From assembly GCF_000092045.1 (NCBI RefSeq), contig NC_007761.1, positions 1,739,001-1,803,000 of the forward strand: a stretch of DNA of 64,000 nt. The letters are read 5' to 3'. This stretch comes from Rhizobium etli CFN 42 (GTDB taxonomy: Bacteria; Pseudomonadota; Alphaproteobacteria; Rhizobiales; Rhizobiaceae). Positions 14,989-28,911 of the stretch are shown in pieces (the stretch's first letter is position 1; every line of letters begins with the position of its first letter). The translations under genes and the position numbers were made by a program. A model generated the notes under the pieces. The model was given only the letters and a program-made list of their open reading frames with translations, was not told the origin of the DNA and searched no databases.

Positions 14989-15026
14989 ATTACCCAAAAG
15001 CCGCGTGAAAACGGCTTTTGGGTAAT
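14989..15026 (+). promoter_or_regulatory. Perfect 15-bp RNA hairpin between rplL and rpoB
   Basis: ATTACCCAAAAGCCG (14989-15003) pairs without a mismatch with CGGCTTTTGGGTAAT (15012-15026) around loop CGTGAAAA. There is no U-tract. In E. coli the rplL-rpoB gap holds an RNase III cleavage site, so processing is a plausible role here by analogy. Confidence 0.75.
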
Positions 15027-15186
15027 GGGTTCTTCAAGAGCATGGTCTCGAACCGAAGTGCCAAGGCAATCCGGCCTGGCTGTTTCGGGAGGTGGGACGA
15101 GGTTGAACTACTCATTGATCGGCGGGGTCGACTGGCCATCGGTTCCCGTCCGTTGCAGGCCCGGATGCAATTTTGAAGGAGCGACG

Positions 15187-23824: not shown

Positions 23825-24118
23825 TCAGCTGAACCGGATGATCGCGACCTCGCCATCGACCGCACCCTGATAGGCCGAGGCATGCGGCTCTTCCGCCGGA
23901 ATTTCGGTCAGCATGCCGATCTGGTCGAGGTCGGCCTCGATGAAGCCCTCCTCGGCAAGAGCGTTCAAGGCTTCGCGCACGGCGGTGTCGTCATCGGGCG
24001 CCTTCAGCAGGATGTGCAGGTCGATGCCTTCGCTGGCCTCGGACTCATAGCCTTTGCCGATGATGATGAAGATCATCGGCCCGTCGAAGTTATTGTCGTT
24101 ATCAGGTGTCGTGATCAT
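23825..24118 (-). CDS. Conserved-looking acidic 97-residue protein, function unknown
   Basis: No signal peptide or membrane segment. The N-terminus is Asp/Asn-rich (MITTPDNDNNFDGP), followed by an alternating hydrophobic strand (MIFIIIGKGYE), then an alpha/beta pattern typical of a small folded domain (GIDLHILLKAPDDDTAVREAL... and EVAIIRFS at the end). It is convergent to rpoC, with the rpoC terminator between them. Codon use is like the surrounding genes. I do not recognise the family; similar short proteins seem characteristic of Rhizobiales, but that is recall rather than a search result. Confidence 0.65.
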   Translation of the reverse strand: MITTPDNDNNFDGPMIFIIIGKGYESEASEGIDLHILLKAPDDDTAVREALNALAEEGFIEADLDQIGMLTEIPAEEPHASAYQGAVDGEVAIIRFS

Positions 24119-24614: not shown

Positions 24615-24986
24615 ATGCCTACCGTAAACCAGCTGATCCGCAAGCCTCGCCAGGCGAACGTAAAGCGTAATAAGGTTCCCGCTCTTCAGGAGAACCCGCA
24701 GAAGCGCGGCGTTTGCACGCGCGTCTACACGACGACGCCGAGGAAGCCGAACTCGGCTCTGCGTAAGGTCGCCAAGATCCGCCTGACCAACGGCTTCGAA
24801 GTCATTGGTTACATCCCCGGTGAAGGTCACAACCTTCAGGAACACTCCGTCGTCATGATCCGTGGCGGGCGCGTCAAGGACCTTCCGGGTGTCCGTTATC
24901 ACATCATCCGCGGCGTTCTCGATACCCAGGGTGTCAAGAACCGCAAGCAGCGTCGCTCCAAGTACGGTGCGAAGCGTCCGAAGTAA
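24615..24986 (+). CDS. rpsL: 30S ribosomal protein S12 with Arg at position 43
   Basis: Decoding-centre protein, 123 residues. The conserved loop reads [13 protein letters not shown]: codon 43 (24741-24743) is AGG, Arg, where the family normally has Lys (AAG). K43R is the classical high-level streptomycin-resistance substitution; the second resistance position (Lys88, in GGRVKDLPG) is the usual Lys. All other conserved parts match. First gene of rpsL-rpsG-fusA-tuf. The change is read directly; the resistance phenotype is inferred. Confidence 0.98.
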
Positions 24987-25034: not shown

Positions 25035-25535
<501 letters not shown>

Positions 25536-25564: not shown

Positions 25565-27664
<2,100 letters not shown>

Positions 27665-27732: not shown

Positions 27733-28911
27733 ATGGCAAAGAGTAAGTTTGAGCGCAACAAGCCGCACGTCAACATTGGCACGATCGGCCACGTTGACCA
27801 CGGCAAGACGTCTCTGACGGCAGCGATCACGAAGTACTTCGGTGAGTTCAAGGCGTACGACCAGATCGACGCGGCTCCGGAAGAGAAGGCACGCGGCATC
27901 ACGATCTCGACGGCGCACGTTGAGTATGAGACGCCGGCCCGCCACTACGCGCACGTTGACTGCCCCGGCCATGCCGACTACGTGAAGAACATGATCACCG
28001 GTGCGGCGCAGATGGACGGCGCGATCCTGGTTTGCTCGGCTGCTGACGGCCCGATGCCGCAGACGCGCGAACACATCCTGCTCGCCCGCCAGGTCGGCGT
28101 TCCGGCAATCGTTGTGTTCCTGAACAAGGTCGACCAGGTTGATGACGCCGAGCTTCTCGAGCTGGTTGAACTCGAAGTTCGCGAACTTCTGTCGTCCTAC
28201 GACTTCCCGGGCGACGACATTCCGGTCGTCAAGGGTTCGGCGCTTGCTGCTCTTGAAGACTCCGACAAGAAGATCGGCGAAGACGCGATCCGCGAACTGA
28301 TGGCAGCGGTCGACTCCTACATTCCGACGCCTGAGCGTCCGGTTGACCAGCCGTTCCTGATGCCGATCGAAGACGTGTTCTCGATCTCGGGCCGTGGTAC
28401 GGTCGTGACCGGCCGCGTCGAGCGTGGCATCATCAAGGTTGGTGAAGAAGTCGAGATCGTCGGCATCCGTCCGACCTCGAAGACGACGGTGACCGGCGTT
28501 GAAATGTTCCGCAAGCTGCTCGACCAGGGCCAGGCCGGCGACAACATCGGCGCGCTGATCCGCGGTGTGAACCGTGACGGCGTCGAGCGTGGTCAGATCC
28601 TGTGCAAGCCGGGCTCCGTCAAGCCGCACAAGAAGTTCAAGGCAGAAGCCTACATCCTGACGAAGGAAGAGGGCGGCCGTCATACGCCGTTCTTCACCAA
28701 CTACCGTCCGCAGTTCTACTTCCGCACGACGGATGTGACCGGCATCGTGACGCTTCCGGAAGGCACGGAAATGGTCATGCCGGGCGACAACGTCACGGTT
28801 GACGTCGAGCTGATCGTTCCGATCGCGATGGAAGAAAAGCTGCGCTTCGCCATCCGCGAAGGCGGCCGCACCGTCGGCGCCGGTATCGTCGCTATCGAGT
28901 CGCTCGAGTAA
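27733..28911 (+). CDS. tuf: Elongation factor Tu, copy 2
   Basis: The str-operon copy of EF-Tu, 392 residues. By eye the nucleotide sequence matches copy 1 (8562) from two bases before the ATG to codon 387, then diverges at once: the C-terminus is IESLE rather than SIVE, and flanks share nothing. This confinement of identity to the coding region is the usual mark of concerted evolution by gene conversion. GGAGAGCCGAAA precedes the start. Confidence 0.98.

What the first reader, a model, noticed from the sequence alone, without database searches (positions are those of the whole stretch)
24741..24743. S12 codon 43 encodes Arg (K43R), the classical streptomycin-resistance residue
The conserved S12 loop TTTPKKPNSA reads [10 protein letters not shown]; codon 43 is AGG, one transition from AAG. 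K43R in S12 is an established high-level streptomycin-resistance change, and several reference rhizobial strains are selected streptomycin-resistant derivatives. The window may therefore come from such a derivative rather than a wild isolate.
Basis: partly seen in the sequence, partly recalled or inferred. Interest (0 to 1): 0.75.

Follow-up and report, generated by a model that had tools for sequence, protein, structure and literature searches.

The report
Streptomycin-resistance mutation in reference genome
The public reference genome of the bean symbiont Rhizobium etli CFN42 carries a classic streptomycin-resistance change in ribosomal protein S12, so the DNA that was sequenced most likely came from a laboratory-selected resistant derivative rather than the wild-type strain.

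Summary
Confirmed: codon 43 of the only rpsL copy is AGG (Arg) at 24741-24743. Arg43 is exceptional: of 120 Rhizobium genomes read, 117 have Lys and 3 have Arg. In a family sample, 102 of 103 S12 frames from 101 other genomes have Lys; 8 further genomes gave no match. On a tree of 30 loci built without codon 43, Arg43 needs three separate changes.

The window belongs to R. etli CFN42: positions and bases match those published against GCF_000092045.1. [quoted passage not shown] The third is probably R. favelukesii LPU83, unproven. Papers call CE3 the streptomycin-resistant derivative of CFN42. K43R gives extremely high resistance in Agrobacterium and was found in UPM791 but not in its parent.

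Best reading: the sequenced "CFN42" DNA is streptomycin-selected material, most likely CE3. Neither the original CFN42 allele, nor CE3's, nor the 2006 genome paper could be seen, so this is inferred. The mutation is well known; the provenance of a type-strain reference is what is new here.

The parts
24615..24986 (+). rpsL, ribosomal protein S12 (123 aa), single copy in the genome
24741..24743 (+). codon 43, AGG (Arg); Lys (AAG in 116, AAA in 1) in 117 of 120 Rhizobium genomes
25065..25535 (+). rpsG (S7), next gene of the same str-type cluster
   Evidence: ORF; name recalled from sequence and position, not tested by a family search
25565..27664 (+). fusA (EF-G), same cluster
   Evidence: ORF; name recalled, not tested by a family search
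27733..28911 (+). tuf (EF-Tu), same cluster
   Evidence: ORF; name recalled, not tested by a family search

Best explanation
rpsL here is a K43R streptomycin-resistance allele fixed by laboratory selection. Streptomycin binds where 16S helices meet S12 (introduction of PMC10521367), and Lys43 lies at that site (recalled). Replacing it with Arg by one A-to-G transition keeps the ribosome working but stops streptomycin from acting effectively, giving very high-level resistance. The sequenced stock of R. etli CFN42 was therefore most likely a streptomycin-selected derivative, and CE3 (str-1), the standard laboratory derivative, is the best candidate. Shown: the codon, the single copy, the rarity of Arg43, its separate origins in three Rhizobium genomes, and the identity of the genome. 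Inferred: the resistance phenotype of the sequenced stock, and that the DNA came from CE3 or a sister derivative.
For: Single-copy Arg43. Lys43 in 117 of 120 Rhizobium genomes. On a codon-43-free tree of 30 loci Arg43 needs three changes, all forced by well-supported branches, and this genome's sister on the tree has Lys (97.4% identical over rpsL plus flanks). Genome identity: 6,530,228 bases in 7 contigs, and two published CFN42 variant positions with matching gene type and reference base (chromosome 2848592 T; p42f 343028 C). CE3 is described as a streptomycin-resistant derivative of CFN42 in PMC3518184, PMC4274787, PMC6514139 and PMC7273348, and PMC6514139 lists CFN42 as nalidixic-acid resistant only (passages). 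The second Arg43 genome matches plasmid NC_008379.1 of strain 3841 over 12,000 of 12,000 bases; [quoted passage not shown] K43R occurs in streptomycin-resistant UPM791 and not in its parent 128C53 (PMC5852556, passages). In A. fabrum K43R is a major rpsL allele among mutants selected at 800 ug/ml and gives extremely high resistance with or without strB (PMC10521367, passages). rsmG, another common target, is an uninterrupted frame here.
Against: No rpsL sequence from a streptomycin-sensitive CFN42 stock or from CE3 was available. [quoted passage not shown] One genome of another genus in the family (G124, 2.0 Mb, codon AGA) has Arg43 with no laboratory history known to me, so Arg43 can arise or persist otherwise. 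The third Rhizobium Arg43 genome (G112) is taken for LPU83 only by recall and a weak check, and I saw no text calling LPU83 a selected derivative. 16S rRNA genes could not be read: the search missed them in 5 of 5 genomes.
Confidence: 0.86

Rival explanations
1. Arg43 is natural in the CFN42 lineage: the soil isolate itself was streptomycin resistant, and CE3's str-1 lies elsewhere.
For: Arg43 also occurs in 1 of 103 S12 frames sampled from other genera of the family, in a genome with no laboratory history known to me. The genomes held are one per species, so within-species variation could not be read. PMC4274787 credits the genome sequence to wild-type CFN42 (passage).
Against: Papers treat streptomycin resistance as acquired by CE3, and PMC6514139 lists CFN42 as nalidixic-acid resistant only. 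Lys43 in 117 of 120 Rhizobium genomes.
Confidence: 0.09
2. Sequencing or assembly error, or a mixed culture, in the reference.
For: A single base decides the call, and reads were not available.
Against: The change is exactly a standard resistance substitution, and the same codon AGG appears in the 3841 genome, a documented resistant strain. CE3 reads mapped to this reference gave no confident fixed change in annotated protein-coding genes in pooled evolved populations (PMC8150021, section 15), although the text I read does not say whether changes shared with the ancestor were removed.
Confidence: 0.03
3. Arg43 was selected for something other than streptomycin, for example altered translation speed or accuracy during long laboratory growth or symbiosis.
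For: None found; that S12 tunes translation accuracy is recalled.
Against: The known resistant-derivative history explains it without further assumption.
Confidence: 0.02

Closest known systems
rpsL K43R of R. leguminosarum UPM791 (parent 128C53)
   Same: Same gene and same substitution in a streptomycin-selected Rhizobium whose genome was sequenced (PMC5852556, passages).
   Different: There the parent's sequence was compared; here the parental allele is not available.
rpsL of strain 3841 (R. leguminosarum bv. viciae; R. johnstonii in the plasmid record)
   Same: Codon AGG at 43 (locus L083); [quoted passage not shown]
   Different: Separate origin on the tree; its genome paper openly describes a derivative.
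rpsL K43R selected in Agrobacterium fabrum
   Same: Same substitution, with measured extremely high resistance (PMC10521367, passages).
   Different: Experimentally tested; here no phenotype was measured.

Membership tests
rpsL K43R high-level streptomycin-resistance alleles | Gene is bacterial S12 | tested here: met
   TIGR00981 224 bits, cut-off 113
rpsL K43R high-level streptomycin-resistance alleles | Residue aligned with conserved Lys43 is Arg | tested here: met
rpsL K43R high-level streptomycin-resistance alleles | No second wild-type rpsL copy to mask it | tested here: met
   1 match in the whole genome
rpsL K43R high-level streptomycin-resistance alleles | Derived, not the usual state of relatives | tested here: met
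   117 of 120 Lys; three changes on a tree of 30 loci
rpsL K43R high-level streptomycin-resistance alleles | Immediate parent has Lys43 | not testable with these tools
   one genome per species held; records very near the window's genome may be left out
rpsL K43R high-level streptomycin-resistance alleles | Streptomycin resistance measured | not testable with these tools
   no bench data for the sequenced stock; CE3 is resistant by literature
rsmG loss-of-function resistance | rsmG broken by stop or frameshift | tested here: not met
   207-aa uninterrupted frame, TIGR00138 104.5 bits, cut-off 99.5; a missense loss was not excluded
rrs (16S) resistance mutations | Change at a known 16S site | tested here: inconclusive
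   16S search found no copy in any of 5 genomes, a miss of the search

The most novel reading that the evidence does not exclude
The type-strain reference genome of R. etli is in fact the genome of its streptomycin-resistant ribosome mutant CE3, so CE3 data mapped to this reference cannot show str-1, and work that treats CE3 as wild type has been done in a ribosome mutant.
Probability: 0.68. Interest if true: 0.35.

Novelty: new member of a known kind. Interest (0 to 1): 0.28.

Why it matters
A reference labelled as a wild-type type strain appears to carry a laboratory-selected ribosomal allele. Variant calls against it, S12 or translation comparisons, and statements about natural streptomycin resistance in R. 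etli would need this caveat. In the Rhizobium set sampled, Arg43 also marks 3841, a documented streptomycin-resistant derivative, so codon 43 of rpsL is a quick first check of provenance for rhizobial genomes, though not proof (G124).

Tried and rejected
Rejected: that Arg43 is the normal rhizobial state (117 of 120 Lys); that a second rpsL copy keeps Lys43 (1 match); that a broken rsmG is the resistance lesion (uninterrupted frame). A rifampicin marker in rpoB was considered and rejected: the core stretch is identical in this genome and in the 11 other Rhizobium genomes whose stretch was read; 12 other Rhizobium genomes were searched, and the twelfth, G003, gave only a partial match and no locus. 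Eight genomes of other families, also printed, differ from it at one or more places.

Led nowhere: the 16S rRNA family search (0 of 5 genomes). Megablast of two G000 plasmid ends named no CFN42 record; the tool says near records may be left out. Megablast of G112's 151,687-base contig named no strain. The 2006 CFN42 genome paper and the 2003 symbiotic-plasmid paper are not held. Searches joining R. etli with rpsL and streptomycin listed 1 paper and 3 papers; the relevant one was PMC5852556, and the other two were judged by title and start of abstract only. Searches for the sequenced culture gave no statement that CE3 DNA was used in the passages I opened; most listed papers were not opened. 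PMC7674921, PMC4294206, PMC1994971 and PMC4167512 (passages) did not settle it.

Full report
Observation. The + strand ORF 24615-24986 encodes ribosomal protein S12 (123 aa; TIGR00981). Residue 43, counted from Met, is Arg, codon AGG at 24741-24743, in the loop [10 protein letters not shown]. The whole genome has one S12 match, so no second copy with Lys was found.

How unusual it is. I read rpsL in 120 Rhizobium genomes including this one (drawn evenly from the genus by the tool; letters from the loci and; counted). Lys43 occurs in 117 (116 AAG, 1 AAA) and Arg43 in 3, all AGG: this genome (G000), G038 and G112. In those 120 genomes S12 differs from the window's protein only at positions 14, 15 and 43. 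A family-level sample had 111 genomes, of which 103 gave a match and 8 did not. Two of the 103 are this genome and one Rhizobium already counted (G016); the other 101 genomes gave 103 S12 matches (one genome, G144, gave three). Of these 103, 102 have Lys and 1 has Arg (G124, codon AGA; two frames missed by the script's pattern were read and have Lys).

Separate origins. A maximum-likelihood tree of 30 rpsL loci with flanks (the first 30 of the 120 in the ranking), built with codon 43 left out, needs three changes between Lys and Arg, and its well-supported branches force all three. The window's sister on the tree is L109 (G100), which has Lys and is 97.4% identical over rpsL and flanks. The shuffle test says only that Arg43 is not clustered (3 changes; shuffled mean 2.9).

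Which genome this is. G000 has 6,530,228 bases in 7 contigs, including the 4,381,608-base contig with the window and contigs of 371,254 and 194,229 bases; that these are the sizes of the CFN42 chromosome, p42d and p42a is recalled. PMC5852556 gives 6.53 Mb for R. etli CFN42 (passages), and PMC3518184 gives a chromosome and six plasmids (passages). PMC8150021 mapped reads to CFN42 GCF_000092045.1 (section 12) and lists positions (section 15): a sorbosone dehydrogenase at chromosome 2848592 (T to C) and an alpha-L-fucosidase at p42f 343028 (C to G). In G000 an open frame with a GSDH-family match spans C2:2848592, where the base is T, and an alpha-L-fucosidase match spans C7:343028, where the base is C. 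I take this as identification of the CFN42 reference.

History of the strain. PMC3518184, PMC4274787, PMC6514139 and PMC7273348 (passages) describe CE3 as a streptomycin-resistant derivative of CFN42; PMC6514139 lists CFN42 as nalidixic-acid resistant only. If CFN42 is streptomycin sensitive, it can hardly be the source of an Arg43 sequence, because K43R gives extremely high resistance in the related A. fabrum whether or not strB is present (PMC10521367, abstract and passages). The DNA sequenced as CFN42 then came from a streptomycin-selected stock, CE3 being the obvious one. This step is inference. The 2006 genome paper is not held. [quoted passage not shown] None of the passages I opened says which culture was used.

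Independent parallels. G038 matches plasmid NC_008379.1 (352,782 bases) of strain 3841 over 12,000 of 12,000 bases. [quoted passage not shown] for pRL7 the table prints 151,546 where G038:C2 has 151,564. UPM791 has K43R while its parent 128C53 does not (PMC5852556, passages). G112 is probably R. favelukesii LPU83: this rests on recall of its replicon sizes and on GH16 genes on both its chromosome-sized contig and its 151,687-base contig (a third lies on C62), in line with exo genes on the chromosome and on the smallest plasmid of LPU83. That paper uses streptomycin at 400 ug/ml for Rhizobium and Ensifer (PMC7902896, passages). In the listings and passages I saw, nothing says that LPU83 is a selected derivative.

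Other resistance loci. rsmG is an uninterrupted 207-aa frame. An APH(6)-like gene lies at G000:C2:3120976-3121683; it scores 302 bits against NF033614, under that model's cut-off of 460, so its action on streptomycin is unproven. 16S genes were not read.

A further hint. CE3 and its evolved lines were resequenced against the CFN42 reference, and pooled data had no confident fixed change in annotated protein-coding genes (PMC8150021, sections 12 and 15). If the reference had Lys43 and CE3 Arg43, a fixed rpsL change could have appeared. The text I read does not say whether ancestral differences were removed, so this is weak.

Evidence against my reading. Arg43 in G124 shows that the residue alone is not proof of laboratory selection. 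The CFN42 parental allele and the CE3 allele are both unseen. Only one genome per species was available, and the streptomycin phenotypes of the Lys43 relatives were not checked.

Verdict. The mutation and its mechanism are well known; the instance, in a type-strain reference labelled wild type, is a useful provenance correction that I did not find in the held library.

Noticed in passing
L215:1378-2280 (G000:C2, family match 3120976-3121683), outside the window: A 300-aa APH(6)-like phosphotransferase (PF04655; NF033614 302 bits, under its cut-off), between ORFs that look like an alkene reductase and a LacI-type regulator (names recalled, not searched). The family is found in 4 of 5 Rhizobium genomes tested, not in G001, whereas PMC10521367 reports strB as absent from the other Rhizobiaceae genera it examined.
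   Followed up: partly
L296 (G124:C47:99189-99557): S12 with Arg43 (codon AGA) in a 2.0 Mb genome of another genus of the family; possibly a natural case.
   Followed up: no
L328-L330 (G144): Three S12 matches of 87, 79 and 73% identity in one genome, two of them on contigs under 5 kb; perhaps a mixed assembly.
   Followed up: no
family sample: 8 of 111 genomes gave no S12 match, 5 of them rated at least 90% complete; probably assembly gaps.
   Followed up: no
window 15025-15186: The rpoB ORF is open 54 codons upstream of the likely start MAQTLSF (15187); several relatives have stops in matches that include this stretch, so it is probably not coding.
   Followed up: partly
window 23825-24118 (-): A 97-aa ORF on the minus strand between rpoC and rpsL, opposite to the surrounding genes; not searched.
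   Followed up: no
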